Shown: one piece after another, positions 5,787-24,878 of the stretch
Numbering within the stretch: position 1 is the stretch's first letter
Layout of the letters: every line of letters starts with the position of its first letter
The notes under the pieces: generated by a model
Databases searched by the model: none
Told to the model about the DNA's origin: nothing
What the model saw: the letters and a program-made list of their open reading frames with translations, nothing else
NCBI GenBank assembly: GCA_035288405.1
Contig: DATEAK010000017.1
Location: 1 to 28,814 of the forward strand
Length of the DNA: 28,814 bases
Source of the DNA: JACPSX01 sp035288405 [NCBI: bacterium]
Lineage (GTDB): Bacteria; JACPSX01
Direction: 5' to 3'
Position numbers and translations under genes: made by a program

Positions 5787-6674
5787 GTGAAACCGGCAAA
5801 CTTCAAGTATGAAGCTCCTGCCAGTCTGGAGGAGGCCCGAGAACTCCTCCGGGCCCACGGTGGAGAGGCCAAGATTTTAGCCGGAGGCCAAAGCCTCATG
5901 CCTCTTCTCAACATGAGACTCGCTCGCCCTCAGGTTATCGTCGACATAAATCGGGTGCAGGAACTGGAATTTATCCGGGTTGGGGAGGACGGATTGCATC
6001 TGGGAGCCTTGGTAAGACAGGCAAAGCTAGAAGAAGACCCGCTCATCGCCCGGCATTGTTACCCACTGAAAGAAATTGCACCTTTCATTGGCCATCCGGC
6101 GACTCGATGCCGTGGAACTGTGGGGGGAAGCCTCGCTCACGCTGACCCTGCTGCCGAGCTTCCATCTCTTCTTGTAGCTCTGGGCGCACGCTTCAAGATT
6201 TCTGGGGAAGGGGAGCGCTGGGTGCCTGCCGATGATTTTTTCGTTACCTATTTCACTACAGCCCTGGGGCCGGAGGAGATCCTGTCTGAGATCGTTATCC
6301 CCTACATGGGCCAAGGTACCGGAGTCTCATTTAGGGAATTTAACCGCCGCTGGGGGGACTTTGCCATGGCCGGCATCGCGGTTTTCCTGGCTGTGGATGC
6401 GACGGGGAAAATTCGCCGGGCGTGCCTCGTTCCCGTAGGAGTCGAGGGGGCTCCAAGGCGGATCCAGGAAGTCGAGGCAAGGCTGCAAGGGGAGCCCAGG
6501 AGCCCAGGCCTTTTTGAGGAGGCCGGAGTCTTGATAGCCCGGGAGGTGGAAGCGCAATCCGATCTGAATGCTTCCGCGGACTACAGGCGTCGACTGCTGG
6601 AGGTTCTTACCGTTCGAGCTCTGGAAGACGCGTACTTCCGAGCTATGGAGGAGAGCGCCCGTGGCCAGGCATGA
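5787..6674 (+). CDS. Molybdenum hydroxylase FAD-binding subunit (CoxM/CutM-like)
   Basis: A 295-residue medium subunit of a xanthine-dehydrogenase-family (CO-dehydrogenase-type) hydroxylase. It starts at GTG after a GGGGGAAG ribosome site. FAD-binding motifs AGGQS (residues 32-36) and TVGGS (111-115) are present in the usual PCMH-type order, followed by the CO_deh_flav C-terminal region. The subunit passes electrons from the 2Fe-2S clusters of the small subunit to FAD and then to an acceptor. Its end overlaps the GTG start of the small subunit by 14 bases, so M-S-L order and translational coupling are clear. True CO dehydrogenase is unlikely; see the large subunit. Confidence 0.95.
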   Translation: MKPANFKYEAPASLEEARELLRAHGGEAKILAGGQSLMPLLNMRLARPQVIVDINRVQELEFIRVGEDGLHLGALVRQAKLEEDPLIARHCYPLKEIAPFIGHPATRCRGTVGGSLAHADPAAELPSLLVALGARFKISGEGERWVPADDFFVTYFTTALGPEEILSEIVIPYMGQGTGVSFREFNRRWGDFAMAGIAVFLAVDATGKIRRACLVPVGVEGAPRRIQEVEARLQGEPRSPGLFEEAGVLIAREVEAQSDLNASADYRRRLLEVLTVRALEDAYFRAMEESARGQA

Positions 6675-7143
6675 GATTCAGGTGACAGTGAACGGCGTGC
6701 AAGGGGTCTACCGTGTGGAGGCCCGGAAAACACTGTGCGATTTCCTGCGTCATGATTTAGGCCTGACCGGGACCCATGCCGGCTGCGAGCACGGATCCTG
6801 CGGAGCCTGTACTGTCCTCGTGGACTCGGTGCCAGTACGCTCCTGTCTGATGCTGGCAGTTCAATCCCATGGATCCCGGATTGTCACCGTCGAAGGCTTG
6901 GCTCAAGACGGAAAACTACACCCATTGCAAAAGGCCTTTGCCGACCATCATGGTTTGCAGTGCGGCTTTTGTACCCCGGGGTTCTTGCTCACTCTTGTCT
7001 ACCTATTGGGCAGGGGCAAACGTATGGGAGAAGAAGAACTGCGCCGGGAGCTGAGCGGCAACCTGTGTCGCTGCACGGGCTACCAGAAAATCGTTGAGGC
7101 CGCCCTGGATGCCCAGGCCGCCCAGGCGGAGGAAAAAAGCTGA
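6661..7143 (+). CDS. Molybdenum hydroxylase 2Fe-2S subunit (CoxS-like)
   Basis: A 160-residue small subunit. The GTG at 6661 is chosen because GGAGGAGAG lies just upstream and the product then starts at the family N-terminus; the open frame itself runs further 5' inside the FAD gene. The eight cluster cysteines are present: a plant-ferredoxin-type set at 42, 47, 50 and 62 (CEHGSCGAC) and the second cluster at 101, 104, 136 and 138 (CGFC and CRC). This is the full complement for electron transfer from the molybdenum centre to FAD. Its TGA overlaps the ATG of the large subunit by one base. Confidence 0.96.
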   Translation: MARHEIQVTVNGVQGVYRVEARKTLCDFLRHDLGLTGTHAGCEHGSCGACTVLVDSVPVRSCLMLAVQSHGSRIVTVEGLAQDGKLHPLQKAFADHHGLQCGFCTPGFLLTLVYLLGRGKRMGEEELRRELSGNLCRCTGYQKIVEAALDAQAAQAEEKS

Positions 7144-9479
7144 TGGATAAAGGTTCGACCGTCTATGTGGGGAAGCCTCTTTCCCCCCGGGAAGACCTGG
7201 CGCTCGTGCAAGGGCAAGGAACCTATGTGGATGATTTCCATTTTGCCGGGATGCTGGAGGCAGCGTTCGTGCGCAGCCCTCATGCCCATGCTCGAATCAG
7301 GGCCATCAACCTCGATGCTGCTCTGGCTTTGCCGGGCGTCTGCGGGATCTTTGTCTACTCCGACCTGCCAACCGACGCCCGCAGCTTCCTGCCTGCTCTC
7401 GGTGATCCTTCCTTAAATATCATTACAGATCCCATCCTGGCCGATGGGGAAGTGCGTTATGTGGGTGAACCCGTCGCCGTGGTTCTGGCGGAAGACCGAT
7501 ACGTGGCTGAAGATGGGGCGGATTTGGTTGCAGTATCTTATGAGCCTCTTCCCGCCTCTGTTGCCCTGGAAAGAGCCTTAGACCCTGATGCGCCGCTCGT
7601 TCATCCGGAGACGGGCACAAATTTGGTCGGGGAGAGGACCTGGGCAACCGGAGATGTGACGGGTGCATTTGGGAATGCAGACCTGATACTGAAAGAAGTT
7701 TTGCGCGTCCACCGAGGCACCTCAAGTCCTATCGAAACTCGAGGGATCGTCGTATTTCCCGAGACCCGTACCGGATTCCTCATGGTCTGGGCCTCGACCC
7801 AATCCCCCCACCGTGTGCGAGACATGCTCGCTGCTCTCCTGAGAATCCCGGTTCATCAGATCCGGGTGATGGCTCCTGCTGTTGGAGGAGGATTTGGTCC
7901 TAAGAGTGGAGTCTACCCGGAGGATTTTTTAATTCCCTGGCTCGCGCAGCGGCTGGGGAGGCCCGTTAAGTGGATCGAGGATCGGCGCGAATACCTTCTA
8001 TGTGCCCGTCAAGAGCGCGACCAGGTGCATCGGGTCGAAATCGCCCTATCCCGCGACGGCAGGATTCTGGGGCTCAAAGATGAGTTTCTCTATGACGTGG
8101 GGGCATACTCCAGCACAATCATTTCCCCTTGGACAACGGCCTATACGATCCCGGGGCCTTACCGTATTTCGAACTTGTCTCTTACACTGCGGCTTGCTTT
8201 CACCCACAAGGTTCCCACCATGACCGTGCGGGGAGCTGGACGTCCCCAGGCCGTCTTTGTCATGGAACGATTGGTGGAGCGTGCGGCCCGGGCTTTGAAA
8301 ATTGATCCTGCCGAGATTCGGCGGCGCAATCTAATTACCCCAGAGGACATCCCATGGGATACAGGGCTCACCACTCGGGAAGGTGAGAGGGTCGTATATG
8401 AATGTGGGAATTTCCCGGATTACCTGAATCGAGTCCTGGAAAAGATTGGTTACGACCGTTTCCGGAACGAGAAAAAGGAGGCAGGGAGAATAAGACGGGG
8501 GATCGGCATTGCTTCCTATGTGGAAACGACGGGTATGGGACCTTACGAAGTTGCCCGGGTCGCCCTTGATTCGAATGGAAAGGTCACCGTGTACGCCGGC
8601 ACCGCCCCTCAAGGCCAGGGACACCAGACGGTTTTATCTCAGATTTGTGGTGAGGAGTTGGGCGTAGACCCGGCAGAGATTCGGGTCATCACCGGGGATA
8701 CTGCTTTCATCCCTTTTGGGATTGGGACTTTTGCCAGCCGGTCTGGTGTGACGGCCGGCAATGCTGTGTCTATGGCTGCCCGCTCTCTGGGGCGTCGGCT
8801 GCGGGAATATGCCAGTCGCGAGTTTTCCTGCCCTGCCGACAGGGTATTCCTTGCCGAGGGGAAGATTCACGTTGAGGGTGAAGTTCCCCATGTCCTCTCC
8901 CTTTCCCAGTTTATGGGTCAGCTTTTGCAACATCGACCTGAACGTAAACAACAAATTATTGGTCCCCCTTTGCTTGAAGAGAGTGCCGTTTTTACACCCG
9001 ATCGACATAGTCACGCGGCTGGAGCCCATGCCGCCATCGTGGAGGTGGATCTAGAGACAGGGGGGGTCAAGATCTTGCGCTATGCCGTCGTTCACGACTG
9101 TGGCCGGGTGCTTAATCCAATAATCGTCGAAGGACAGATCCAAGGTGGGGTAGTCCATGGGATCGGCAATGCCTTACTGGAACGGGTTGCCTACGACGAG
9201 AACGGACAAGTGCTGAGTGGATCGTTTATGGACTATCTCTTGCCAACGGCGGCTGAAGCTCCCCGTGTGGAGATCGGCTTGGTGGAGACGCCGAGCCCGG
9301 TCAATCCATACGGAATTAAGGGAGTGGGGGAATCCGGGACAATGCCTGCACCTGCAGTTCTAATGGCTGCCATTGAAGACGCCTTACGTCCTCTGGATAT
9401 ATTTGTCCGTTCGGTTCCGATGAGCCCGGAGGAGCTCTTGAATCTCATCGACTCGGCGAAAAATTCCGTCGCCTCCTGA
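7143..9479 (+). CDS. Molybdenum hydroxylase large (Mo-cofactor) subunit (CoxL/XdhB-like)
   Basis: A 778-residue catalytic subunit of the xanthine-dehydrogenase family. The aldehyde-oxidase a/b-hammerhead domain occupies roughly residues 15-140 and the Mo-cofactor domains the rest. Cofactor motifs are STQSPH (218-223), GGGFG (248-252), APQGQGH (near 490) and the catalytic-base glutamate Glu730 in KGVGESG. The loop that carries AYxCSFR in genuine aerobic CO dehydrogenase reads VRGAGR (362-367), so this is a form-II-like or unassigned hydroxylase that probably adds water-derived oxygen to an aromatic or N-heteroaromatic ring or an aldehyde. Nicotinate- and furoyl-CoA-type dehydrogenases share this three-subunit plan. 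Dedicated Mo-cofactor insertion genes are absent from the window. Confidence 0.95.
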   Translation: MDKGSTVYVGKPLSPREDLALVQGQGTYVDDFHFAGMLEAAFVRSPHAHARIRAINLDAALALPGVCGIFVYSDLPTDARSFLPALGDPSLNIITDPILADGEVRYVGEPVAVVLAEDRYVAEDGADLVAVSYEPLPASVALERALDPDAPLVHPETGTNLVGERTWATGDVTGAFGNADLILKEVLRVHRGTSSPIETRGIVVFPETRTGFLMVWASTQSPHRVRDMLAALLRIPVHQIRVMAPAVGGGFGPKSGVYPEDFLIPWLAQRLGRPVKWIEDRREYLLCARQERDQVHRVEIALSRDGRILGLKDEFLYDVGAYSSTIISPWTTAYTIPGPYRISNLSLTLRLAFTHKVPTMTVRGAGRPQAVFVMERLVERAARALKIDPAEIRRRNLITPEDIPWDTGLTTREGERVVYECGNFPDYLNRVLEKIGYDRFRNEKKEAGRIRRGIGIASYVETTGMGPYEVARVALDSNGKVTVYAGTAPQGQGHQTVLSQICGEELGVDPAEIRVITGDTAFIPFGIGTFASRSGVTAGNAVSMAARSLGRRLREYASREFSCPADRVFLAEGKIHVEGEVPHVLSLSQFMGQLLQHRPERKQQIIGPPLLEESAVFTPDRHSHAAGAHAAIVEVDLETGGVKILRYAVVHDCGRVLNPIIVEGQIQGGVVHGIGNALLERVAYDENGQVLSGSFMDYLLPTAAEAPRVEIGLVETPSPVNPYGIKGVGESGTMPAPAVLMAAIEDALRPLDIFVRSVPMSPEELLNLIDSAKNSVAS

Positions 9480-10561: not shown

Positions 10562-11407
10562 ATGAATCAGGACACGAGGTCTCTGACTGCCGGCAGCGTA
10601 TGTGTCGATAAAGCAGCGGAGCCGGTCTTTGCCGAAGAGCAAAAAACCTGGTGGCAGTATCATCTGAAGACATTCCGCATCCTCCTCTCCCTCTTTCTTG
10701 GGCTTCTGCTGTGGGAGATTGTTGGCCGGCTCAGCAATCCATTGATCTTCGTCCCCTTCTCCCAGGTCGTAGGGGCGTTCCTGGAGCTGGCCCGCAGTGG
10801 GGACCTTTGGCGCCACACCTATGTGAGTTTTGTGGAGCTGGTCGTGGGTTTCTCGATCGGGGCCGGCGTGGGGTTAGCCCTTGGCGTCGTGATTGGCGTA
10901 AGCGAGCCTGTACGGGATATGACGGATCCATGGATTTCGGTCCTCTATTCCACCCCGTACATTGCTGTAACGCCCCTATTCATCATCTGGTTCGGGATTG
11001 GGATCACCTCCAAGGCCGCCATTGTCTTCTTGGCCGTGATCTTCCCTGTTCTGCTCAACACGTACGCCGGCATTGCCACGGCAGAGCGACGCCTGGTGGA
11101 GACGGGGCGCGCTTTTGGGGCCTCTAATTTCCAAATATTTCGTTGGATCCTGCTGCCGTCGGCGTTGCCCTCCATCGTGGTCGGCCTACGTCTGGCCATG
11201 TCTCGGGGACTCATCGCGGTGGTGGTGGGAGAGCTCTTCGGGTCCCTGGCGGGGCTCGGTTTTCTGATCGCCAATTCAGCCCAGAAATTCGACACTGCGA
11301 TGCTCCTGGCAGGAGTCTTCACGCTGGCTGGCATCGCCATGATCTTGGTGGAAACCCTCAAGTGGATCGAGCACCGGATGGCGCCCTGGCGCGAGGCAAC
11401 CGAATAG
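10562..11407 (+). CDS. ABC transporter permease 1 (SsuC/TauC-type)
   Basis: A 281-residue inner-membrane protein of the BPD_transp_1 family with about six hydrophobic segments from residue 38 onward. The cytoplasmic EAA loop that contacts the ATPase is clear at about 175-203 (ERRLVETGRAFGASNFQIF then LLPSALPSI). A polar N-terminal stretch of about 35 residues precedes the first membrane span. The ATG follows GGGAGGGAGG. It sits between the duplicated receptors SBP3 and SBP4 and upstream of ATPase 1, giving a full aliphatic-sulfonate/nitrate/taurine-type importer. The superfamily name describes fold, not substrate. Confidence 0.94.
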   Translation: MNQDTRSLTAGSVCVDKAAEPVFAEEQKTWWQYHLKTFRILLSLFLGLLLWEIVGRLSNPLIFVPFSQVVGAFLELARSGDLWRHTYVSFVELVVGFSIGAGVGLALGVVIGVSEPVRDMTDPWISVLYSTPYIAVTPLFIIWFGIGITSKAAIVFLAVIFPVLLNTYAGIATAERRLVETGRAFGASNFQIFRWILLPSALPSIVVGLRLAMSRGLIAVVVGELFGSLAGLGFLIANSAQKFDTAMLLAGVFTLAGIAMILVETLKWIEHRMAPWREATE

Positions 11408-14633: not shown

Positions 14634-16091
14634 ATGGTTCAATTAGATCTGAGAGGGTGGCTGGAAGAGGTTCGCCGCCTGGGCGAGCTCCTGGAGCCGG
14701 AGGAGACCCACTGGGACCGGGAGATGGGGGCCCTGACCCAGCTCGTTCACGAAACCCATCCTGAGAATCCTCCGGCGTTGCTCTTTGACAAGATCCCGGG
14801 ATATCCGGTGGGGTTTCGCACCCTTTACGGGACATTGAGCTCCGTGCCGCGGCTGGCCCTGACGCTGGGCCTTCCTCTGGAATACGAAAACCGGCTGGAA
14901 TTCGTCGGCGCCTTCCGGGACAAAATGGCCCGGGTGGAGCGGATTTCCCCGGTGACCGTCAAAGAGGGGCCTGTTCTCGAAAATTTCCAGGAGGGGACGC
15001 AGGTCGACGTTCTGAAATTTCCCATTCCCAAACATCACGAGCAGGACCCCGCCCGCTTTATCGCCACCGCCTCGGCCGTCATTCTCAGACATCCTGAAGA
15101 GGGCTGGGTGAACGTGGGGACCTACCGGTCCATGGTCTATGATGGCCGAACGATTGGCCTGGAGATGTCGCCAACCAGCGATGGGGGTCGTATTCAAGAA
15201 GCCTACTTCCGGCAAGGAAAACCCATGCCGGTTGCCCTGTGCGTGGGGCAGCATCCCCTCCTCTATCTTGTGGGAGCGAGCTCCTGGAAAATCCCCGAGT
15301 TGGATGCGGCGGGGGGGCTGCTGGGAGAGCCCGTGGAGGTGATTGAGGGTCCTTATACAGGACTCCCAATCCCGGCGGCTGCCGAGATCGTCATCGAGGG
15401 GGTTATGGAGCCTGGCCTAACCAAGCCTGAGGGTCCCTTCGGGGAGTGGATGGGATACTACGCCAGCGAGGTGGTGGAACGCCCCTACGTCCAGGTGAAG
15501 ACGGTCCTGCACCGCAACGATCCCATCCTGACCTGTGCTCCTCAGCACCGCCCCACGGATGAAACCGTCCTCCTGCGCTCGGTGGCGAATGCCGCCAAGA
15601 CCTGGGAAGCACTGGATGGTCTCGGGATTCGTGGGGTCAGGGGGATCTGGCAGCACGCCGGAGGGGCCGCCAAGAAATTCCTGGTCATCTCCCTGGAACA
15701 GGCCTACCCCGGACATGCCCGCCATGTCCTGCATTCCGCTGCGGTGTCCGGGGGCGCCATCTTCGGGGGGAAGTGGATCATCGCCGTGGATGAGGACATC
15801 GATCCTTCCAATGCCACCGAGGTCATCTGGGCCCTGTCGACCCGAGTCAACGGCCCGGATGACTTTGACTTCATTCCCGAGGCGCCGTCAGGAGGGCTGA
15901 TCGATCCCCTCACCGGGGGGTATTTCAATACCCGAATCCTGGTCGACGCCACAATCCCCTTCGACCTGAAGAAGGCCGGAAAGTTTCCAAGGCCCGTGGT
16001 GGTCAGCAAGGAGATGGAGGATTCCCTGCGCCGTCGTTGGGGAGATCTCCTAGGGTTTAGTGAGAGAAAATATACCCGGGAGGGGCGATGA
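14634..16091 (+). CDS. UbiD-family prFMN-dependent decarboxylase (UbiD3)
   Basis: A 485-residue UbiD-family protein with a canonical TTAGGAGGA ribosome site. It is most similar to UbiD1, sharing NVGTYR, GLPIPAAAEIVIEG and EGPFGEW-GYYASE. The catalytic set is present: Asn160, Arg165, Glu222, Glu266 and Glu271. At the position of the metal-binding His191 of Fdc1, however, the alignment gives Asp183 in SPTSDGGR, with no His within several residues. Asp can ligate Mn2+ or K+, so activity is still plausible with a changed metal site. The stop overlaps the ATG of permease 2, linking this decarboxylase to the second importer; the acid it handles may be the importer's ligand. Confidence 0.92.
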   Translation: MVQLDLRGWLEEVRRLGELLEPEETHWDREMGALTQLVHETHPENPPALLFDKIPGYPVGFRTLYGTLSSVPRLALTLGLPLEYENRLEFVGAFRDKMARVERISPVTVKEGPVLENFQEGTQVDVLKFPIPKHHEQDPARFIATASAVILRHPEEGWVNVGTYRSMVYDGRTIGLEMSPTSDGGRIQEAYFRQGKPMPVALCVGQHPLLYLVGASSWKIPELDAAGGLLGEPVEVIEGPYTGLPIPAAAEIVIEGVMEPGLTKPEGPFGEWMGYYASEVVERPYVQVKTVLHRNDPILTCAPQHRPTDETVLLRSVANAAKTWEALDGLGIRGVRGIWQHAGGAAKKFLVISLEQAYPGHARHVLHSAAVSGGAIFGGKWIIAVDEDIDPSNATEVIWALSTRVNGPDDFDFIPEAPSGGLIDPLTGGYFNTRILVDATIPFDLKKAGKFPRPVVVSKEMEDSLRRRWGDLLGFSERKYTREGR

Positions 16092-16855
16092 TGGGAGGCA
16101 AGGGTAAGACTGCCTTGATTCGCCTGGGGTCTATCTTCGGCTGTCTGGTGTTCTGGGAGGTCACTTCCCGGTTTGTCCCCATGGGTCTTTTCCCCGGCCT
16201 TCGAGAGACCTTCGATGCCTTTTACGATAACCTAGTCCAAGGGGTACTCCTGGTCAATCTTGGGGTCACCACGCGGCGGGTGTTTGTTGGCTTCCTGGTG
16301 GCCCTTTTGATTGGAGCCATCATGGGGTTGTTCATGGGGCTCAAGCGGGTCGTGGAAGATTCCTTGACCTATCCCATGCTATTTGCCATGTCAATTCCCA
16401 GCTTGGCCTGGGTGATCCTGGGGCTCATGTGGTTTGGCTTGACCGAATTCGCGGGCATCTTTGTCATCTCGGCAATCGTATTCCCCATCGTTGTCATCAA
16501 TACCTACGAGGGGGTCAAGGGTGTGGACAAAACTTTCATCGAGATGGCCCAGGCCTATAAGGCCAGCCAATGCAAGATCATCTTCGAGATCATTCTCCCC
16601 TCCACTTTTCCATACATTCTGTCGGCCTGTCGGTTCGGGATCGGCGTGGCATGGAAAATTGCCATTATTGCGGAAATGCTGGGCATGAGCCTCGGGGTCG
16701 GCTACCAGCTCAAGTACTACTACTCCCTGTCGCGGATGGACCAGGTTCTGGCCTGGATCCTGGTTTTTACTCTGGCCATTTTCATCGTTGACCGCTTTGT
16801 CCTGGCGCGGATTAGCGCTCTGGTTCTGAGGTGGAGGCCAAACGTCGCGTTATGA
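16088..16855 (+). CDS. ABC transporter permease 2 (SsuC/TauC-type)
   Basis: A 255-residue inner-membrane permease with a short N-terminus and about six hydrophobic spans. The EAA loop is at about 147-176 (DKTFIEMAQAYKASQCKIIF then LPSTFPYI). The start codon overlaps the UbiD3 stop (ATGA), and GGGAGGGG just upstream is the ribosome site. It is clearly divergent from permease 1, so the two transport cores are not a recent duplication. It is expected to pair with ATPase 2 and with SBP5-7. Confidence 0.94.
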   Translation: MMGGKGKTALIRLGSIFGCLVFWEVTSRFVPMGLFPGLRETFDAFYDNLVQGVLLVNLGVTTRRVFVGFLVALLIGAIMGLFMGLKRVVEDSLTYPMLFAMSIPSLAWVILGLMWFGLTEFAGIFVISAIVFPIVVINTYEGVKGVDKTFIEMAQAYKASQCKIIFEIILPSTFPYILSACRFGIGVAWKIAIIAEMLGMSLGVGYQLKYYYSLSRMDQVLAWILVFTLAIFIVDRFVLARISALVLRWRPNVAL

Positions 16856-17640
16856 ATCTATCAGTAGATACCAGCCAGCGAACAATCAAGATTTCTCTTC
16901 GCAATGTTCGGAAAGACTTCCGCAAAGGGGATGGGACTGATCTCACCGCGATCGCGAATCTAAGCTTCGATGTTTATGAAGGAGAGTTCCTCTGCCTTTT
17001 GGGTCCTTCAGGTTGTGGAAAGTCCACATGCCTGGGCTTGCTGGGAAGGATCGATACTCCCTCCGGGGGGGAGATTCGGTTCTCGGGTCAGCGTGATTCC
17101 TACAAGATCGGCTTTGTCTTTCAGTCCCCGCGGCTGCTTCCCTGGAAGACCATTTGGAAAAACGTACGCTTTAGTCTGGAGAGCCAGAAGCCTTTTCCCA
17201 GGCAGGAATGGAACGAGCGCGCGGCAAAGGCCATCGAGCTCGTGGGGTTAAATGGGTTCGAGGGTTGCTTCCCACATCAGCTCTCCGGAGGGATGCAGAT
17301 CCGCGGAGCCATTGCCAGGGCTCTAGCCCTGGAGCCCGAGGTTTTGCTCCTCGATGAGCCCTTCAGCAATCTGGACGAAATCACCGCGAAAAAGGTCCGC
17401 AAGGAGCTGTTGTCCATCTGGAGGCGGCTCGGCATGACGATTGTGTTTATTACCCACGATCTGCACGAGGCCGTCTTTCTGGCGGACCGGATCTTGCTGC
17501 TGACACCAAGACCTATGAGCCTCTTTAATGAATTTATGATTACGGTACCCAGGCCGCGCTCCTACTCGGAGCCGGACCTTTTTGAAGCGGAAACCCAAAT
17601 TGCCCGGGCCTTTGAGGCCATGATGCCGAGTGAAGAATAG
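16852..17640 (+). CDS. ABC transporter ATPase 2 (SsuB/TauB-type)
   Basis: A 262-residue ATP-binding subunit. The ATG overlapping the permease 2 stop (ATGA) is preferred. A GTG 21 bases upstream is in frame but lies inside the permease gene, and the GGAGG there is rather far from the ATG. Walker A GPSGCGKS is at 51-58, Q-loop Gln91, signature LSGGMQIR at 144, Walker B VLLLDEP with Asp168-Glu169, and H-loop His202. The helix after the signature reads QIRGAIARA instead of the usual QRVALARA, an unusual but not obviously disabling change. The SBP5 gene follows 46 bases downstream. Confidence 0.95.
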   Translation: MNLSVDTSQRTIKISLRNVRKDFRKGDGTDLTAIANLSFDVYEGEFLCLLGPSGCGKSTCLGLLGRIDTPSGGEIRFSGQRDSYKIGFVFQSPRLLPWKTIWKNVRFSLESQKPFPRQEWNERAAKAIELVGLNGFEGCFPHQLSGGMQIRGAIARALALEPEVLLLDEPFSNLDEITAKKVRKELLSIWRRLGMTIVFITHDLHEAVFLADRILLLTPRPMSLFNEFMITVPRPRSYSEPDLFEAETQIARAFEAMMPSEE

Positions 17641-17686
17641 AATTGCACAGGCGCCCGGTTCGAGGCCGGGGTGGAAGGAGGGGATC

Positions 17687-18670
17687 ATGAAAAGAGCGTC
17701 GAGATGGTTGCTGGCGGGTTTGTGGGCTGTCTCGGCCGTGATGTGGGGAAAAGGTCTCGGCCTGGCGGCAACCCAGACTGAAACTCTCAAGGTGGCCTTT
17801 TTCCCCGGGGCCATCTCGGTCCCCATCAACGTCATGGAGACGCAAAAGCTCCCCCAGAAGTTCGGGATCAATGTGGACTTCAAGCGATTTGCCGACCCCG
17901 AGGCTACAGACCTCGCCTGGATTCATGGGGAAGTCCACCTGCAGCCCGGGATAAACCTGAACCAGTCGGCGGCCAACTTCCTCAAAACGGGCCACGGGCT
18001 CGTGGTCTTCCCCACCTTCATGGCCACGAACAAGGTTCTGGTCAAGGCGGACTCGGGAATTGGGCAGCTCAAGGATCTCAAGGGGAAGCGGCTGGGCATC
18101 CCGAGCCGCACGAGCGGCGAATCCGTTGTCTTGAGGTGGCTTCTCGATGAAGCAGGCCTGCGCTGGGAGCGGGACGTGGACGTGCGCGAGATCCCGCCCA
18201 ATGTTCTGCCTGGGATGCTCCAGCGGGCCCAGGTGGATGCCATCGTGCTCTTTGAGCCTTTTGCTTCGCGGGCCATCGACGAAGGGGGAGGCGCGGTGAA
18301 GCTGCTCTCGGATTTGCAGGTGGAGTGGCAAAAGCGCAAGGGTTTTCCCCTCATGTTCAGCGCCATTCACGTGGATGATAAGTTTGCCCGGAAGAACCCC
18401 GAAGTGGTCAAGAAGTACCTGGCCATGTACAAGGAAGCGGTGGAATACATCGAGAAGAATCCCGACTCGGTGTATGGATTCTACCGGGGGATCTTTAAAT
18501 TCACGCCGGAGGGGTTCAACCTATTAAAGAGAAATCTGCGCGGGATCTACCCGCTGGAGTGGAACGACAAGATGATCGCCGGCATGAAGGACTACCTGTC
18601 CTTGGCTGTTCGCTATGGACTTTTGCCCCGGGTCCCCGACGAGATGTTTACTCGGGAGTTTGCGCCATGA
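17687..18670 (+). CDS. NMT1/TauA-type ABC substrate-binding protein (SBP5)
   Basis: A 327-residue periplasmic binding protein. The ATG at 17687 is preferred over an upstream in-frame ATG because GGAAGGAGGGG lies directly before it and the product then starts with a standard signal peptide (cut after LGLAA, residue 28). Mature landmarks are FPGAISVPINVMETQKLP, DLKGKRLGIPSRTSGES, and VREIPPNVLPGMLQR in the hinge and second lobe. It follows permease 2 and ATPase 2, so it is the natural receptor of that importer. It is about 90% identical in the mature part to SBP6, 2790 bases downstream, and clearly related to SBP7. Confidence 0.91.
   Translation: MKRASRWLLAGLWAVSAVMWGKGLGLAATQTETLKVAFFPGAISVPINVMETQKLPQKFGINVDFKRFADPEATDLAWIHGEVHLQPGINLNQSAANFLKTGHGLVVFPTFMATNKVLVKADSGIGQLKDLKGKRLGIPSRTSGESVVLRWLLDEAGLRWERDVDVREIPPNVLPGMLQRAQVDAIVLFEPFASRAIDEGGGAVKLLSDLQVEWQKRKGFPLMFSAIHVDDKFARKNPEVVKKYLAMYKEAVEYIEKNPDSVYGFYRGIFKFTPEGFNLLKRNLRGIYPLEWNDKMIAGMKDYLSLAVRYGLLPRVPDEMFTREFAP
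18416..18471 (+). repeat. Exact 56-base repeat, copy 1 (SBP5)
   Basis: Identical to 21206-21261 in SBP6, same orientation. It is the longest exact match I found in the SBP5/SBP6 duplication, long enough to serve homologous recombination. The offset of 2790 bases is constant along both genes. Confidence 0.92.
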
Positions 18671-18783
18671 GAAAGGGTCAGGATGGGTAGCGGGACGGAA
18701 AGAATGTCGGGTCGCCCGCCGGAGAGTTGCGGGGAGCCGTCGCGGACAAGGGTCTGTTTTGACCGACCGGGAGAGCCGTAATC

Positions 18784-20409
18784 GTGCAATATTATGAAGA
18801 CCTGCGGGAGTTTGTCGGGTACTTGGAACAACTCGGCAAATTGCACCGCTGGAGAAGACCCATTAATAAGGATACGGAGCTGATGGCGCTCCATCGCTGC
18901 CAGTTCCGTGGGCTCCCCGCGGAAGAGAGGAAAGTATTCCTTTTCGAGCAAGTTACTGACGCTCGAGGAAGAGCGTTCTCCATGAAGGTACTGGCGGGAG
19001 CCTATGCGGTCTCCGGTCAAGTGATGGCGCTGGGCATGGGATGTCAGAATTGGGAGGAGTTGAAGGAGAAATGGCATTATGCCCTGGAGCATCCGGTAGA
19101 CCCCGTGCTGGTCGATTCAGGGCCGGTTCAGGAAGAAGTCCATGTCGGGAGGGAACTGCAGGAGATTGGCCTGGATGAACTGCCCGTTCCTGTCGAGGAA
19201 CCCGGGTTTGCCGGCACGGTGCGGGTCTGTGCGCCTTTTATCACTCGTGATAGTGAGACGGGAATTCGTAATGTCGGAATGTATAGCGGCCATTTGCGGG
19301 CTAAGGATCGATTGATCGCAGGAATCGCCAGAATTCAGCATGCCATGCTCTACCATTGGAGCGACGCGCGCAGGAGAAAACAAGGGTTGCCTGTAGCGAT
19401 CGTTCTGGGTACCACTCCGGACCTTGTGTTTGCTGCTTCCGCGAGCATACCTTACGGTGTGGACGAACTGGCAGTGGCGGGAGGAATCGCGGGAAGGCCG
19501 ATACCGTTGGTCAGGTGTAAGACCATCCCGCTGGAAGTTCCGGCGATGGCCGAAATAGTCATAGAAGGAGAGCTGTCGACTGAGGTACTGGAACCTTATA
19601 CCGCTTTCGGAGATTACCCGGGCTACATGGATATAGAAAGATCTTCGGTTCCTGTAATCAAAGTGACCGCGATCACTCATCGGCACGATGCCATCTTCAA
19701 CCCGATCCTGGTGGGATTTCCTCCCAGTGAGAACAGCGCGATTTCTCGAATGTTGAATGAGATAACACTGTTTCATTTTCTCAGATACAGTTGCAACCTG
19801 CCCATGGTTGAAGAGGTGCACTGGCCGGAAGCGGCCGGCGGTTTGAATTGGTGTGTGATCCGTATGAAAAAGCTGCACCCCAGCCAGTCGTGGCAAGTCC
19901 TGCGCCTTGCCGCCGGTGCCTGCCCGTTGGGGAAAATATTCATCGCCGTGGACGAGGACGTCGATCCGAAAGACCCGGACCTGGTGACGTGGGCTGTGAG
20001 CTTTGCCATGCAGCCTCATCGAGACGTGGAAGTAATAACAGGTCGGGTGCCCGGGCTGGACCCCTCGGGGCTTTTATTGGCTCATAGAGAGGGAGGAAGA
20101 GAAAGCTATCCCGGTCTGCAAGGCTGCTCGAGCATTCTGATTGATGCCACGCGAAAAGGAGCCTATCCGCCTGTGGCTCTTCCGAAGAAGGAGCACATGG
20201 AAACCGCCATAAGGATTTGGAAAGAGGAAGAGGGTCTCCCGAATCTGAATCTTGCTTCTCCCTGGTATGGTTACGACTTGGGTCAATGGTCGGAAGATGA
20301 TAGGGAAAATGCAGAGCTTATAGCCCGGGGCATGTATCTGAAACTCGGCGAAAAAATGGCTCAGCGCCAGACGCCTGTCGGCGATGAGGCCGGAGAAGCG
20401 GGGTTGTAG
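18784..20409 (+). CDS. UbiD-family protein with degenerate catalytic residues (UbiD4)
   Basis: A 541-residue UbiD-family protein, longer than its three relatives, starting at GTG after GGGAGAG. Asn163, His186 and Glu228 (metal/prFMN-phosphate positions) are kept. The position of catalytic Arg173 of Fdc1 is Ser168 (RNVGMYSGHL; codon AGC, one base from the Arg codon CGC). The EGPFGE catalytic loop reads PYTAFGD, so the first Glu aligns with Tyr272 and the second with Asp277. Loss of Arg and one Glu makes ordinary prFMN decarboxylation doubtful. A different chemistry, a phenylphosphate-carboxylase-like role or a regulatory subunit are alternatives. Codon use differs from neighbours: ten ATA isoleucines and several AGA arginines, against almost none in UbiD3, pointing to recent acquisition. 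It is flanked by the near-identical SBP5 and SBP6. Confidence 0.9.
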   Translation: MQYYEDLREFVGYLEQLGKLHRWRRPINKDTELMALHRCQFRGLPAEERKVFLFEQVTDARGRAFSMKVLAGAYAVSGQVMALGMGCQNWEELKEKWHYALEHPVDPVLVDSGPVQEEVHVGRELQEIGLDELPVPVEEPGFAGTVRVCAPFITRDSETGIRNVGMYSGHLRAKDRLIAGIARIQHAMLYHWSDARRRKQGLPVAIVLGTTPDLVFAASASIPYGVDELAVAGGIAGRPIPLVRCKTIPLEVPAMAEIVIEGELSTEVLEPYTAFGDYPGYMDIERSSVPVIKVTAITHRHDAIFNPILVGFPPSENSAISRMLNEITLFHFLRYSCNLPMVEEVHWPEAAGGLNWCVIRMKKLHPSQSWQVLRLAAGACPLGKIFIAVDEDVDPKDPDLVTWAVSFAMQPHRDVEVITGRVPGLDPSGLLLAHREGGRESYPGLQGCSSILIDATRKGAYPPVALPKKEHMETAIRIWKEEEGLPNLNLASPWYGYDLGQWSEDDRENAELIARGMYLKLGEKMAQRQTPVGDEAGEAGL

Positions 20410-20476
20410 TGTTACCGGGCGTTCGTCAAGAGCGACATCGGTTTTGCTGGAAGCACGCAGCAACAGAGGAGGGATC

Positions 20477-21460
20477 ATGAGAAGATATTCAAGGTGCCTG
20501 TCGTTGAGTTTGTGGGTCGTCTTCATGATCGTTTGGGGGAAAGGTTTTGGCCTCGCGGCAACCCAGTCTGAAACTCTCAAGGTGGCCTATTTCCCCGGGG
20601 CCATTTCCGTCCCCATCAACGTCATGGAAACGCAAAAGCTCCCCCAGAAGTTCGGGATCAATGTGGACTTCAAACGATTTGCCGACCCCGAGGCCACCAA
20701 CCTTGCCTGGATTCACGGTGAAGTTCAATTGCAGCCCGGGATGAATTTAAACCAGTCAGCGGCCAACTTTCTGAGAAGCGGATACGGACTCGCGGTGTTC
20801 CCCACGTTTGTGGCCACGAACAAGGTTCTCGTCAGGACGGATTCGGGAATCGCTCAGCTCAGTGACCTCAGGGGAAAGCGCGTGGGTATCCCGAGCCGCA
20901 CGAGCGGCGAGTCCGTAGTTCTGAGGTGGCTACTGGAAGAAGCGGGCGTGGGCTGGGAACGGGAAGTGGAAGTGCGCGAGATCCCGCCCAATGTTCTGCC
21001 GGGGATGCTCCAGCGCACCCAGGTGGATGCCATCGTGCTCTTTGAGCCGTTTTCTTCCCGGGCCATTGACGAAGGAGGAGGGGGAGTAAAGCTTCTCTCA
21101 GATTTACAGGCGGAGTGGCAAAAGCGTAAGGGTTTTCCCCTGATGTTCAGCGCCATTCACGTGGACGGAAATTTTGCCCGGAAGAACCCTGAAGTGGTCA
21201 AGAAATACCTGGCCATGTACAAGGAAGCGGTGGAATACATCGAGAAGAATCCCGACTCGGTTTATGGATTTTACAGAGGCCTCTTTAAGTTCACGCCGGA
21301 GGGGTTCAATCTACTGAAGAAAAATCTGCGCGGAATCTACCCGCTGGAGTGGAATGACAAAATGATCGCTGGAATGAAGGACTACCTTTCTTTAGCCGTT
21401 CGCTATGGACTTTTGCCCCGGGTCCCTGACGAAATGTTCAGTCGGGAGTTTGCTCCCTGA
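20477..21460 (+). CDS. NMT1/TauA-type ABC substrate-binding protein (SBP6)
   Basis: A 327-residue near-copy of SBP5 with the same length and about 30 substitutions in roughly 300 mature residues. The ATG at 20477 is preferred over an upstream in-frame start because GAGGAGGG precedes it and the signal peptide (cut after GLAA, residue 28) then starts normally. The signal peptide has diverged more than the mature part. Most substitutions are conservative (Lys/Arg, Asp/Glu, Leu/Val), so the ligand is probably the same or very similar. It follows UbiD4 by 67 bases. Confidence 0.91.
   Translation: MRRYSRCLSLSLWVVFMIVWGKGFGLAATQSETLKVAYFPGAISVPINVMETQKLPQKFGINVDFKRFADPEATNLAWIHGEVQLQPGMNLNQSAANFLRSGYGLAVFPTFVATNKVLVRTDSGIAQLSDLRGKRVGIPSRTSGESVVLRWLLEEAGVGWEREVEVREIPPNVLPGMLQRTQVDAIVLFEPFSSRAIDEGGGGVKLLSDLQAEWQKRKGFPLMFSAIHVDGNFARKNPEVVKKYLAMYKEAVEYIEKNPDSVYGFYRGLFKFTPEGFNLLKKNLRGIYPLEWNDKMIAGMKDYLSLAVRYGLLPRVPDEMFSREFAP
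21206..21261 (+). repeat. Exact 56-base repeat, copy 2 (SBP6)
   Basis: Identical to 18416-18471 in SBP5 and in direct orientation. Recombination between the two copies would delete UbiD4 and leave one hybrid binding protein. Confidence 0.92.
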
Positions 21461-21532
21461 GCAGGAGCCGGGATGAGTAGAAGTGGATGAAGCTGTCGTA
21501 TTAGGTCTTCCCAATAAAGGAGGGAGCCCAAG

Positions 21533-22573
21533 ATGCAAAGCGCGCGGAAGGAAAAATTGAGGTCCACGTTTCCGAAGGTAAGAGCAAGGGCCACCGATGG
21601 TTTGTCTGTTCTGGCAGCCGTGGTGCTCGTCTTGGTCCTGGCGTTGGTAGGGGCCGGATCAGCTTGGTCCCAGGATGCCGGGGTGCCCATCAAGGTCGGG
21701 ATCATTCCAGGGATCATCGATGTTCCGGTACTGCTCATGCAGGCCATGGGATTGCCCGCCAAATACGGCGTCAAACTGGATGTGCGGCGCTTCGCAGATC
21801 CCGGGACAATCAACGAAGCTTGGCTCCACCGGGAGATTCATCTGCAGCCCGGCATGAACGTGCTGCAGTCGTCAGCCCAATTCCTCAAAACCGGGTACGG
21901 CCTTGCGGTTTTTTCCAGCTTCCTGGCCAGCAACACGGTGATCGTGAAGAGTACTTCTCCGATTACACAGCTGAGGGATCTCAAGGGGAAACGGTTGGGG
22001 ATCCCGAACCGTCTCAGCGGAGAGGGGCTGGTTTTGCGCTGGCTTTTCGATGAGGTTGGAGTTCCCTGGGAAAAGGAAGTTGATGTGCGGGAGATTCCCC
22101 CGAACGTCATGCCTGGCATGTTGCAAAGAGATCAGATCGATGCCATGGTCCTGTTCGAGCCTTTAGCTTCCATGGCTCTCACTACTGGCCCATTTCGGAC
22201 CGCTCTGGACGTTCAGGGAGAGTGGCAGAGGAGGCAAGGGTCCCCTCTCATGTTTAGCGCGATCCATGTGGATGATCGGTTTGCCCGCGAAAACGGGGAG
22301 GTTCTCAGGGCCTACCTGCGAATGTACCGGGAGGCCGCCCTGCAAATCCCCAAGGATCCTGACAAGGCCTTTGCCCACTACAAGACGGCCATGAAGTTGA
22401 CCGATCGCACCTTCGAGGTTCTCAAGGAGAACATGAAAGACGACTATCCGGTCGAATGGAACGAAAAGACGATCAAGGGGATGCACGAGGTCCTGAAGCT
22501 GGCTGTGAGATTCGGCCTGATCGAGAAAATCCCTGAGAAAATGTTCGCTCTGGAGTACGCCCCAAGATCGTAG
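21533..22573 (+). CDS. NMT1/TauA-type ABC substrate-binding protein (SBP7)
   Basis: A 346-residue binding protein of the same subfamily as SBP5 and SBP6, but far more divergent. Shared landmarks include RFADPGT, LQPGMN, DLKGKRLGIPNRLSGE, VREIPPNVMPGMLQR and SPLMFSAIHVDDRFAR. It has a long basic N-terminus (about 23 residues) before the hydrophobic signal core, with the cut predicted after AWS near residue 46. GGAGGGAG precedes the ATG. It is the last gene of the plus-strand run; no strong hairpin-plus-T-run terminator is visible in the 166 bases separating it from the convergent regulator gene. Confidence 0.9.
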   Translation: MQSARKEKLRSTFPKVRARATDGLSVLAAVVLVLVLALVGAGSAWSQDAGVPIKVGIIPGIIDVPVLLMQAMGLPAKYGVKLDVRRFADPGTINEAWLHREIHLQPGMNVLQSSAQFLKTGYGLAVFSSFLASNTVIVKSTSPITQLRDLKGKRLGIPNRLSGEGLVLRWLFDEVGVPWEKEVDVREIPPNVMPGMLQRDQIDAMVLFEPLASMALTTGPFRTALDVQGEWQRRQGSPLMFSAIHVDDRFARENGEVLRAYLRMYREAALQIPKDPDKAFAHYKTAMKLTDRTFEVLKENMKDDYPVEWNEKTIKGMHEVLKLAVRFGLIEKIPEKMFALEYAPRS

Positions 22574-22739
22574 AAAGCCTTACAGCCGAATCTATGGGGT
22601 TATTCAGAGTGAGACGTAGTGCGAGGAGAATGGCGGACGGCGGCCGATGGGATTTAAAGGCGGAAAAAGCTCGTGCTGCCTGGCATGAGGAGAAGGAGAC
22701 AGTTGGCTGTGCTATATCGCTGACCCAAGCCAGCGAAAC

Positions 22740-24101: not shown

Positions 24102-24878
24102 ATGGGCGTATATGGATGGAAAGCGACGATCGGGATCATCGTTCCCCCGCGAACGAATGAAACCGTGATTCAGGAGGCGTTTCGCCTGGTCCCCGAGGGG
24201 GTCTCCTGGTGTTGGTCCGTGATGGGACTGCCGGAATTCGGCCAGATGGAATTCGATGAAGCATTGAGCCGCGCGAGTCTAGCCGCCCGGGAGCTTGCGG
24301 ATCGCAATGTGGATATCATTGTGTCGACCGGCATCCCGCTCGTCACTTCCAGAGGACCCGGATATCACGAGCGTCTGGAGAAGGAACTTTCTGCGGCGAT
24401 TGATCACAAAAAGCCGGTCACTACGGACATCCACTGTGTTTTGGGAGCGTTCAAGGCGCTTGAGTTGGATGACCTGGTGATCTCCTCCATCTATCAACGC
24501 TATATCCAGGACAACCTGATTCGGTACCTGGCACACTACGGCATTCGCACGCTTGCGGATGAAGGTTTGAGCTACGCCTTGGCTGACTGCTTGACCCGGC
24601 CCACGATGGAGACCTCCTATGAAGCTGCTTCGAGGGCGAGTCAGAAGGCCCCGCGGGCCAAGGGAATTTTCATTTCCTGTCCTCAGTGGCCGGTGGTCGG
24701 CAATGTCGAGCGGTTGGAGCGCAACACGGGGAAAAAGGTCGTGGCTCAGCTGGCCGCCATTTTGTGGGGATGCTTGAGTCAGATCGGAATCAAGGAATCG
24801 ATTTCCGGTTACGGCCAGCTCCTCCGCGACTGGCCCCAATGGACCGAGCCGGTACCGCAACAGGTTCGGGCCAGTTGA
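24102..24878 (+). CDS. Arylmalonate decarboxylase / maleate isomerase-like protein (Asp/Glu racemase superfamily)
   Basis: A 258-residue protein of the Asp/Glu racemase fold, preceded by AAGGAGGGGG. The start GIIVPPRTNE is typical of the arylmalonate decarboxylase (AMDase)/maleate cis-trans isomerase branch. Racemases and maleate isomerases use two cysteines. Here the first is absent: the segment VSTGIPL carries Gly77 where AMDase has Gly74. The second is present as Cys193 in IFISCPQWP, matching Cys188 of AMDase, and the C-terminal SGYGQLL matches its PGYGRLF. A single-cysteine, AMDase-type decarboxylation is thus the closest parallel, although the Thr-Ser after the Gly that help form the AMDase oxyanion hole are Ile-Pro here. 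It starts the second plus-strand group, behind the long regulatory region. Confidence 0.86.
   Translation: MGVYGWKATIGIIVPPRTNETVIQEAFRLVPEGVSWCWSVMGLPEFGQMEFDEALSRASLAARELADRNVDIIVSTGIPLVTSRGPGYHERLEKELSAAIDHKKPVTTDIHCVLGAFKALELDDLVISSIYQRYIQDNLIRYLAHYGIRTLADEGLSYALADCLTRPTMETSYEAASRASQKAPRAKGIFISCPQWPVVGNVERLERNTGKKVVAQLAAILWGCLSQIGIKESISGYGQLLRDWPQWTEPVPQQVRAS

What the first reader, a model, noticed from the sequence alone, without database searches (positions are those of the whole stretch)
18784..20409. UbiD4 lacks the catalytic Arg and one catalytic Glu of the UbiD family
Aligned by eye to Fdc1 numbering, Arg173 is Ser168 and the EGPFGE loop is PYTAFGD, while the metal/prFMN-phosphate residues Asn163, His186 and Glu228 stay. 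UbiD1-3 in the same window keep Arg and both Glu. An intact 541-codon frame with a changed active site suggests a different reaction (for example a phenylphosphate-carboxylase-like or non-oxidative route) or a regulatory partner of another UbiD protein. Known: Arg173, Glu277 and Glu282 are needed for Fdc1 catalysis. Seen: the substitutions. Inferred: altered function.
Basis: partly seen in the sequence, partly recalled or inferred. Interest (0 to 1): 0.66.

Follow-up and report, generated by a model that had tools for sequence, protein, structure and literature searches.

The report
UbiD decarboxylase subfamily lacking catalytic arginine
This gene belongs to a conserved bacterial subfamily of the prenylated-flavin decarboxylases in which the arginine thought essential for catalysis is always serine while the acid-base residue is kept, so it probably still works as an enzyme but holds its substrate in a new way.

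Summary
UbiD4 (18784-20409, +) is an intact UbiD-fold protein with Ser168 at Fdc1 Arg173 and Tyr272 at Fdc1 Glu277. The third change (Glu282 to Asp277) is not a loss: E. coli UbiD has Asp there, and Fdc1 E282D stays active. Ser168 marks a clade: all 22 relatives found at 54-64% identity keep it, while 69 of the 74 other loci (49% or less) have Arg. The Ser clade is one branch (support 100), was found in one bacterial order only (16 of 35 genomes), and is under purifying selection (dN/dS 0.04-0.12, closest pairs). Position 277 varies (G, E, S, Y, H); an acid at 282 is invariant (193 of 193). Arg is lost at least twice more (Asn and Thr clades). In the long-tailed subfamily both Arg-less clades carry a new Arg on the neighbouring strand; no Arg type does. 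A true PpcA keeps Arg, so 'phenylphosphate-carboxylase-like' does not explain it. Best reading: an active prFMN enzyme with a rebuilt carboxylate site. Main rival: a non-catalytic UbiD partner. Nothing was tested biochemically; no model coordinates were available.

The parts
18784..20409 (+). UbiD4: 541-aa UbiD-fold protein, long C-terminal tail, Ser at the Fdc1 Arg173 position
   Evidence: ORF and translation; Pfam UbiD, UbiD_N, UbiD_C above cut-off; AF2 model pLDDT 92.4, best PDB match HmfF Z 48.1, rmsd 1.9 over 423 residues
19285..19287 (+). codon of Ser168 (Fdc1 Arg173)
   Evidence: Ser in 23 of 23 clade members
19597..19614 (+). YTAFGD, codons 272-277 (Fdc1 Glu277 = Tyr272, Glu282 = Asp277)
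19222..19224 (+). codon of Arg147, clade-specific Arg on the strand next to Ser168
   Evidence: 22 of 22 readable clade members (23 in all); no Arg in columns 144-149 of 94 Arg-type long-tailed relatives
19291..19293 (+). codon of His170, two residues past Ser168 on the same strand
   Evidence: His in 23 of 23 clade members; Arg types Gln 45, Met 24, His 10 of 94
17630..18670 (+). SsuA-type ABC substrate-binding protein just upstream
   Evidence: NCBIfam SsuA_fam match below cut-off; 87% identical to the copy downstream of UbiD4
20384..21460 (+). second copy of that substrate-binding protein; its longest frame overlaps the 3' end of ubiD4 by 26 bases
21533..22573 (+). third, more distant substrate-binding protein of the same group
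16088..17640 (+). ABC permease and ATPase genes upstream (16088-16855 and 16831-17640)
   Evidence: ORFs; each clusters with other ABC genes (the permease cluster's other member, 10562-11407, is Pfam BPD_transp_1; the ATPase cluster holds an ABC_tran protein of L133); not scanned themselves
14634..16091 (+). UbiD3, canonical Arg and both Glu, nearest UbiD paralogue in the window

Best explanation
UbiD4 is a member of a conserved Arg173-less UbiD subfamily that most likely still binds prFMN and still does acid-base chemistry on a prFMN-bound substrate, but no longer holds the substrate carboxylate (or CO2) with the family's Arg-Glu pair. Shown: UbiD fold predicted with high confidence; Asn and Glu that bind metal in Fdc1 kept (the His in most members); acid-base position always Asp/Glu; Arg replaced by Ser in the whole clade; Glu277 freed to vary, as expected if its job is to tune the Arg; purifying selection. 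Inferred: catalysis is retained; Arg147 on the adjacent strand and/or His170 now binds the substrate, so that substrate, binding pose or direction of reaction differs from the canonical enzymes; oxidative maturation of prFMN, which is severely affected by loss of Arg173 in Fdc1, proceeds another way or is helped by a partner. Substrate unknown; the gene sits among ABC importers, a molybdenum hydroxylase and canonical UbiDs, which suggests breakdown of imported organic acids or aromatics.
For: Asp/Glu at 282 in 193 of 193 UbiD sequences, all 34 Arg-less ones included. Acid at 277 in 159 of 159 Arg types but only 13 of 34 Arg-less ones (only about three independent origins, so the Fisher p of 1e-19 overstates it). 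In the clade Asn163 22 of 22 readable, Glu228 23 of 23, His186 20 of 23. Clade support 100 on 83 rows. dN/dS 0.04-0.12 in the 14 closest pairs. AF2 model pLDDT 92.4, pTM 0.90; HmfF at Z 48.1. New Arg in columns 144-149 in 28 of 28 readable Ser/Asn-type sequences against 0 of 94 Arg-type long-tailed ones. Fdc1 R173A keeps low activity and matures slowly (PMC5818171, passages), so an Arg-less UbiD need not be dead.
Against: No activity, cofactor binding or substrate is known. In Fdc1, R173A has only low activity and, when reconstituted in vitro, is dominated by the prFMN radical; E277Q is nearly dead. The His186 column is a weak marker: 3 of 23 clade members have Asp, and only 82 of 159 Arg types have His there. 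The Arg-swap idea has only two independent origins, too few for a test on the tree. The new Arg is not at the same position in both: by the strand ends of the two models Arg147 of the Ser clade lies one residue past the conserved Tyr, whereas the Asn clade changes the Tyr itself, so at most one of them should face the same side as position 168. Of the other Arg-containing (mostly short-tailed) types 32 of 65 also have an Arg in this stretch, so an Arg there is not special to Arg-less proteins.
Confidence: 0.58

Rival explanations
1. UbiD4 is a non-catalytic or weakly catalytic partner (regulatory, cofactor-delivery or structural subunit) of a canonical UbiD encoded nearby, as heteromeric UbiD-type carboxylases use two UbiD-like subunits.
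For: Loss of Arg and, in 16 of 23 clade members, of Glu277. Canonical UbiDs directly adjoin two clade members: L091 abuts an Arg-type gene in L135, and L063 has an Arg-type gene 34 bases downstream. UbiD3 is 2.7 kb upstream in the window. Two UbiD-like subunits are described for phenylphosphate and phenylphosphoamidate carboxylases (PMC7500099, passages).
Against: The acid-base residue is invariant and Asn163/Glu228 are kept, which a mere scaffold would not need. Where a constant neighbour exists it is a cupin gene (16 of 23 clade members), not a UbiD. A true PpcA keeps Arg.
Confidence: 0.24
2. The enzyme uses prFMN for a reaction that is not decarboxylation at all (for example isomerisation, hydration or another addition-elimination), so no carboxylate-binding Arg is needed.
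For: Exactly the carboxylate-binding pair Arg173/Glu277 is relaxed while the acid-base is kept. Many clade-specific residues (for example Glu138-Glu139 against Ser-Thr) suggest a changed site.
Against: I know of no such reaction for a UbiD (recall, not searched for). The neighbourhood does not point to one substrate.
Confidence: 0.12
3. UbiD4 is a decaying copy without function.
For: Changes at two active-site positions; one clade member (L010_16052) has a broken frame.
Against: Intact 541-codon frame; clade-wide conservation of Ser; dN/dS 0.04-0.12 among the 14 closest clade pairs; 22 relatives.
Confidence: 0.03
4. Alignment artefact: the Arg is present but shifted.
For: A new Arg147 lies on the neighbouring strand and there is a one-residue deletion nearby.
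Against: Asn163, five residues before the column, is present in 192 of 193 rows (the other is a fragment), and no gap separates it from the column in the HmfF and E. coli UbiD alignments or in the rows printed.
Confidence: 0.03

Closest known systems
HmfF, UbiD-class enzyme of Pelotomaculum thermopropionicum (PDB 6h6x)
   Same: Fold over 423 residues at rmsd 1.9, Z 48.1, 30% identity; Asn and Glu of the prFMN/metal site
   Different: HmfF has Arg and EGPFGE; UbiD4 has Ser and YTAFGD and a longer C-terminal tail
E. coli UbiD (PDB 5m1d, 2idb)
   Same: Fold (Z 44.8); Asp at the acid-base position (EGPYGD)
   Different: E. coli UbiD keeps Arg and Glu277
A. niger Fdc1 and its R173A variant (PDB 4za4, 6evd)
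   Same: Fold (Z 40.9 for both); natural Ser168 resembles the engineered R173A in lacking the Arg
   Different: R173A is an engineered loss with low activity; UbiD4 is a natural, conserved state that also changes Glu277 and many other residues
Long-tailed Arg-type UbiD relatives (most of L012-L086; annotated 'UbiD family decarboxylase' in Neorhizobium petrolearium, L002)
   Same: 37-49% identity over nearly the full length including the C-terminal tail; in L002 also beside molybdenum hydroxylase, ABC and UbiX genes
   Different: Arg (by definition) and Glu277 in all 94 counted; no Arg in columns 144-149
Phenylphosphate carboxylase alpha/beta (PpcA, PpcB)
   Same: UbiD-fold paralogues used in heteromeric carboxylases
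   Different: UbiD4 far below both cut-offs; a PpcA over its cut-off keeps Arg and both Glu

Membership tests
UbiD family (Pfam UbiD_N, UbiD, UbiD_C) | three domains above Pfam gathering scores | tested here: met
   28.9, 165.4, 75.3 bits against 24.3, 23.3, 24.2
UbiD family | UbiD fold | tested here: met
   AF2 model pLDDT 92.4; 49 of the 50 entries shown are UbiD-type enzymes at Z 37 or more, the 50th an unrelated flavoprotein at Z 11.3
UbiD family (NCBIfam TIGR00148) | score over curated cut-off | tested here: not met
   217.8 bits against 244.85; window UbiD3 also falls below at 223.7
UbiD family, canonical E(D)-R-E catalytic network | Arg at Fdc1 173 | tested here: not met
   Ser168
UbiD family, canonical E(D)-R-E catalytic network | Glu at Fdc1 277 | tested here: not met
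   Tyr272
UbiD family, canonical E(D)-R-E catalytic network | acid-base Glu/Asp at Fdc1 282 | tested here: met
   Asp277; 193 of 193 sequences acidic
UbiD family | Asn, His, Glu that bind Mn2+ (Fdc1 N168, H191, E233) | tested here: met
   Asn163, His186, Glu228 in UbiD4; the His column is only half conserved among Arg types (82 of 159). Fdc1 roles from PMC4947166 (passage)
UbiD family | binds prFMN and (de)carboxylates | not testable with these tools
   needs purified protein
Phenylphosphate carboxylase alpha (TIGR02723) / beta (TIGR02724) | score over curated cut-off | tested here: not met
   80.7 of 564.6 and 88.4 of 468.95 bits
VdcC non-oxidative hydroxyarylic acid decarboxylase (NF041204) | score over curated cut-off | tested here: not met
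   183.2 of 650 bits

The most novel reading that the evidence does not exclude
The UbiD family's supposedly essential catalytic Arg has been dispensed with at least three times, and in the long-tailed lineage twice together with a new Arg on the adjacent strand. The Ser clade would then be a natural prFMN enzyme with a relocated or abolished carboxylate-binding site, a different reaction or substrate class, and a route of prFMN maturation that does not use Arg173.
Probability: 0.4. Interest if true: 0.75.

Novelty: new variant of a known kind. Interest (0 to 1): 0.58.

Why it matters
[quoted passage not shown] passages). A conserved natural clade without that Arg, in genomes that carry dozens of UbiD genes, gives a direct test of what the Arg is for, and an enzyme set that may do chemistry the canonical ones cannot. 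In the listings of the eight paper searches that ran and the passages read, I saw no report of an Arg-less natural UbiD; the library lacks most subscription journals.

Tried and rejected
Phenylphosphate-carboxylase likeness: rejected on scores and because a true PpcA keeps Arg. For PpcB only one match, below the cut-off, was found; it keeps Arg.

Same-column Arg compensation: the first alignments put the new Arg of the Ser and Asn clades in one column. The two AF2 models place the strand ends at the same distance from the invariant Asn, so the one-residue deletion of the Ser clade most likely lies in the loop before the strand, and the two Args differ by one position. I therefore dropped 'the same residue moved twice'.

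Cupin partner as part of the system: 16 of 23 distinct Ser-type genes have a cupin gene within 2.5 kb, against 3 of 94 long-tailed Arg types; counting only genes that could be judged (a cupin found, or at least 1.2 kb on both sides) it is 16 of 22 and 3 of 79. But UbiD4, its nearest relative L087 and the basal L063 have none, so it is not part of the basic unit. Short-tailed Arg types have one in 13 of 52 that could be judged (62 in all), and some of those were fetched only because they lie near Ser genes. The Asn clade has none in 4 that could be judged (6 in all). The cupin queries came from Ser loci.

Rfam on the window: no match at gathering scores. PHROGs on UbiD4: no match. Promoter/terminator scan of 17500-22700: one promoter-like site against 1.7 in shuffles; 13 terminator-like sites against 5.6 expected, not followed. 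A DNA pattern search over 297 genomes of the phylum found the motif in 2 genomes, both already known, and its reversed control once in another; the pattern would miss L087. Model coordinates were not in the Python box, so side-chain directions rest on strand pairing alone. The tree is the quick kind, with SH-aLRT and no bootstraps, and the trait columns were left in.

Full report
WHAT WAS CLAIMED AND CHECKED. The frame is intact, all three Pfam UbiD domains are present, and alignment to solved structures of HmfF and E. coli UbiD gives the same correspondences: Ser168 = Arg173, Tyr272 = Glu277, Asp277 = Glu282. The last is not a loss, since E. coli UbiD has Asp there and Fdc1 E282D keeps 0.63 of 9.4 per second (PMC5818171, passages). 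UbiD1-3 of the window are canonical.

A CLADE, NOT AN ODDITY. A capped scan of the GTDB species genomes with an alignment gave 78 loci of the same long-tailed UbiD subfamily. Four of them (L009, L010, L011, L063; 54-60% identity) have Ser, 69 have Arg and 5 have Asn. Further genome searches raised the Ser set to 23 sequences including UbiD4. Matches at E <= 1e-150 occur in 16 of 35 genomes of one order; in a class sample of 118 they occur in 12, all of them among those 16. In the tree of 83 rows the Ser sequences (22 used, one fragment left out) are one side of a branch with support 100; L087 is nearest to UbiD4 at 64%. The 14 closest pairs in the clade have dN/dS of 0.04 to 0.12.

ARG LOSS IS RECURRENT. 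Of 193 UbiD sequences, 159 have Arg, 23 Ser, 6 Asn, 4 Thr and 1 Met at this column. This sample is not random: it was gathered around UbiD4-like genes. On the tree Arg loss needs three changes: Ser clade, Asn clade inside the long-tailed Arg types, Thr clade inside the short-tailed ones. The Met case (L068_8540) was not in the tree. In one genome, G004, which has 65 matches, 53 UbiD genes were read; of the 52 readable at the column, 45 have Arg, 4 Ser, 2 Asn, 1 Thr.

WHAT CHANGES WITH THE ARG. Every Arg type has an acid at column 277 (159 of 159); of the Arg-less, 13 of 34 have one. The acid-base column 282 is acidic in 193 of 193. This is what the Fdc1 work would predict if Glu277 serves mainly to tune the Arg (PMC5818171) and if the Arg-less proteins still need a proton shuttle. 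The number of independent origins is too small for a test that respects the tree. Asn163 (22 of 22 readable) and Glu228 (23 of 23) stay in the Ser clade; His186 is His in 20 of 23 and Asp in 3, but this column is His in only 82 of 159 Arg types, so it says little. Other clade-specific residues include His170, Arg147 and Glu138-Glu139.

A NEW ARG NEARBY. In columns 144-149, on the strand paired with the one that bears residue 168, Arg is present in 22 of 22 readable Ser-type and 6 of 6 Asn-type sequences and in 0 of 94 long-tailed Arg types. The AF2 models of UbiD4 (pLDDT 92.4) and of the Arg-type L012 (pLDDT 86.1) give strands 146-155/162-173 and 147-156/163-174. From the strand ends, residue 147 would pair with 170 and 149 with 168, which would put Arg147, His170 and Ser168 on one face. 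This is inference; without coordinates a shift by one would reverse it. The Asn clade's Arg sits one position earlier, so both should not be on the same face. Among the other Arg-containing types 32 of 65 also have an Arg in this stretch, so the swap is a hypothesis, not a result.

STRUCTURE. The model's best matches in the PDB are HmfF (Z 48.1, rmsd 1.9, 423 residues, 30% identity) and E. coli UbiD (Z 44.8); Fdc1 follows at Z 41. Fold membership is not in doubt. NCBIfam's general UbiD model is missed narrowly (217.8 of 244.85 bits), as it is by UbiD3.

NEIGHBOURHOOD. In the window UbiD4 lies between two substrate-binding proteins that are 87% identical, behind an ABC permease and ATPase and UbiD3, with a molybdenum hydroxylase set at 5787-9479. 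In other genomes 16 of the 23 distinct Ser-type genes adjoin a cupin-protein gene, against 3 of 94 long-tailed Arg types (16 of 22 and 3 of 79 among those that could be judged). UbiD4 and its nearest relative lack it. The Thr-type UbiDs lie on the same contigs as Ser-type genes in the 4 of 4 cases read, but those loci were fetched around Ser genes or from the same genomes.

EXPLANATION. Most likely an active prFMN enzyme with a rebuilt carboxylate site (0.58). Rivals: a UbiD partner subunit (0.24); a non-decarboxylating prFMN reaction (0.12); decay (0.03); misalignment (0.03). The phenylphosphate-carboxylase idea was tested against a true PpcA (747 bits over a cut-off of 564.6), which keeps Arg and both Glu.

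NOVELTY. In the passages seen, the network is described as conserved in the family (PMC8379154, PMC8988006, PMC5818171). No Arg-less natural UbiD was met in the listings of eight searches. I rate it a new variant of a known kind.

Noticed in passing
G001-G004 (genomes of L009, L010, L011, L063): Each of these 4.2-6.6 Mb genomes holds 44 to 65 UbiD-like matches, and first-look candidates run from 17 to 132 in the 35 genomes of the order, while the 20 genomes outside the order that the class sample lists show 0 to 9 (86 more are not listed). An extreme expansion of prFMN-type enzymes.
   Followed up: partly
L053, L062, L063:11867-13519, L069, L071, L076: A second Arg-less clade: Asn at the Arg173 position, Asp at 277, Glu at 282, with Pro-Arg where Arg types have Pro-Tyr. 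Found in records labelled Delta- and Betaproteobacteria and Verrucomicrobia.
   Followed up: partly
L009:6782-8248, L134:18377-19849, L146:17749-19212, L096:2-1264: A third Arg-less type among short-tailed UbiDs (NCAYQT, loop RHGLRADYARYY: His at 277, Asp at 282), on the same contigs as Ser-type genes and within 2.5 kb of a cupin gene.
   Followed up: partly
L009:5462-6556, L138:9671-10786 and relatives: A roughly 370-aa protein family with cupin-type Pfam matches and a very weak 5-aminosalicylate dioxygenase match, adjoining 16 of 23 Ser-type UbiD genes.
   Followed up: partly
window 17630-18670 and 20384-21460: Two 87% identical substrate-binding protein genes flank ubiD4 (copies 2790 bases apart), with a third more distant copy after them: a local duplication around ubiD4.
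   Followed up: partly
L068:8540-9982: A short-tailed UbiD1-like protein with Met at the Arg173 position and a changed loop (PVARFGDWAGYY): possibly a fourth loss of the Arg.
   Followed up: no
window 24102-24878: A protein of the arylmalonate decarboxylase family (Pfam Amdase 101.8 bits over 25.9; NCBIfam below cut-off) near the UbiD cluster.
   Followed up: no
L010:16052-17320 (G002:C32): A Ser-type UbiD whose frame is broken after about 420 residues, with the rest in another frame downstream; either a pseudogene or an assembly error.
   Followed up: no
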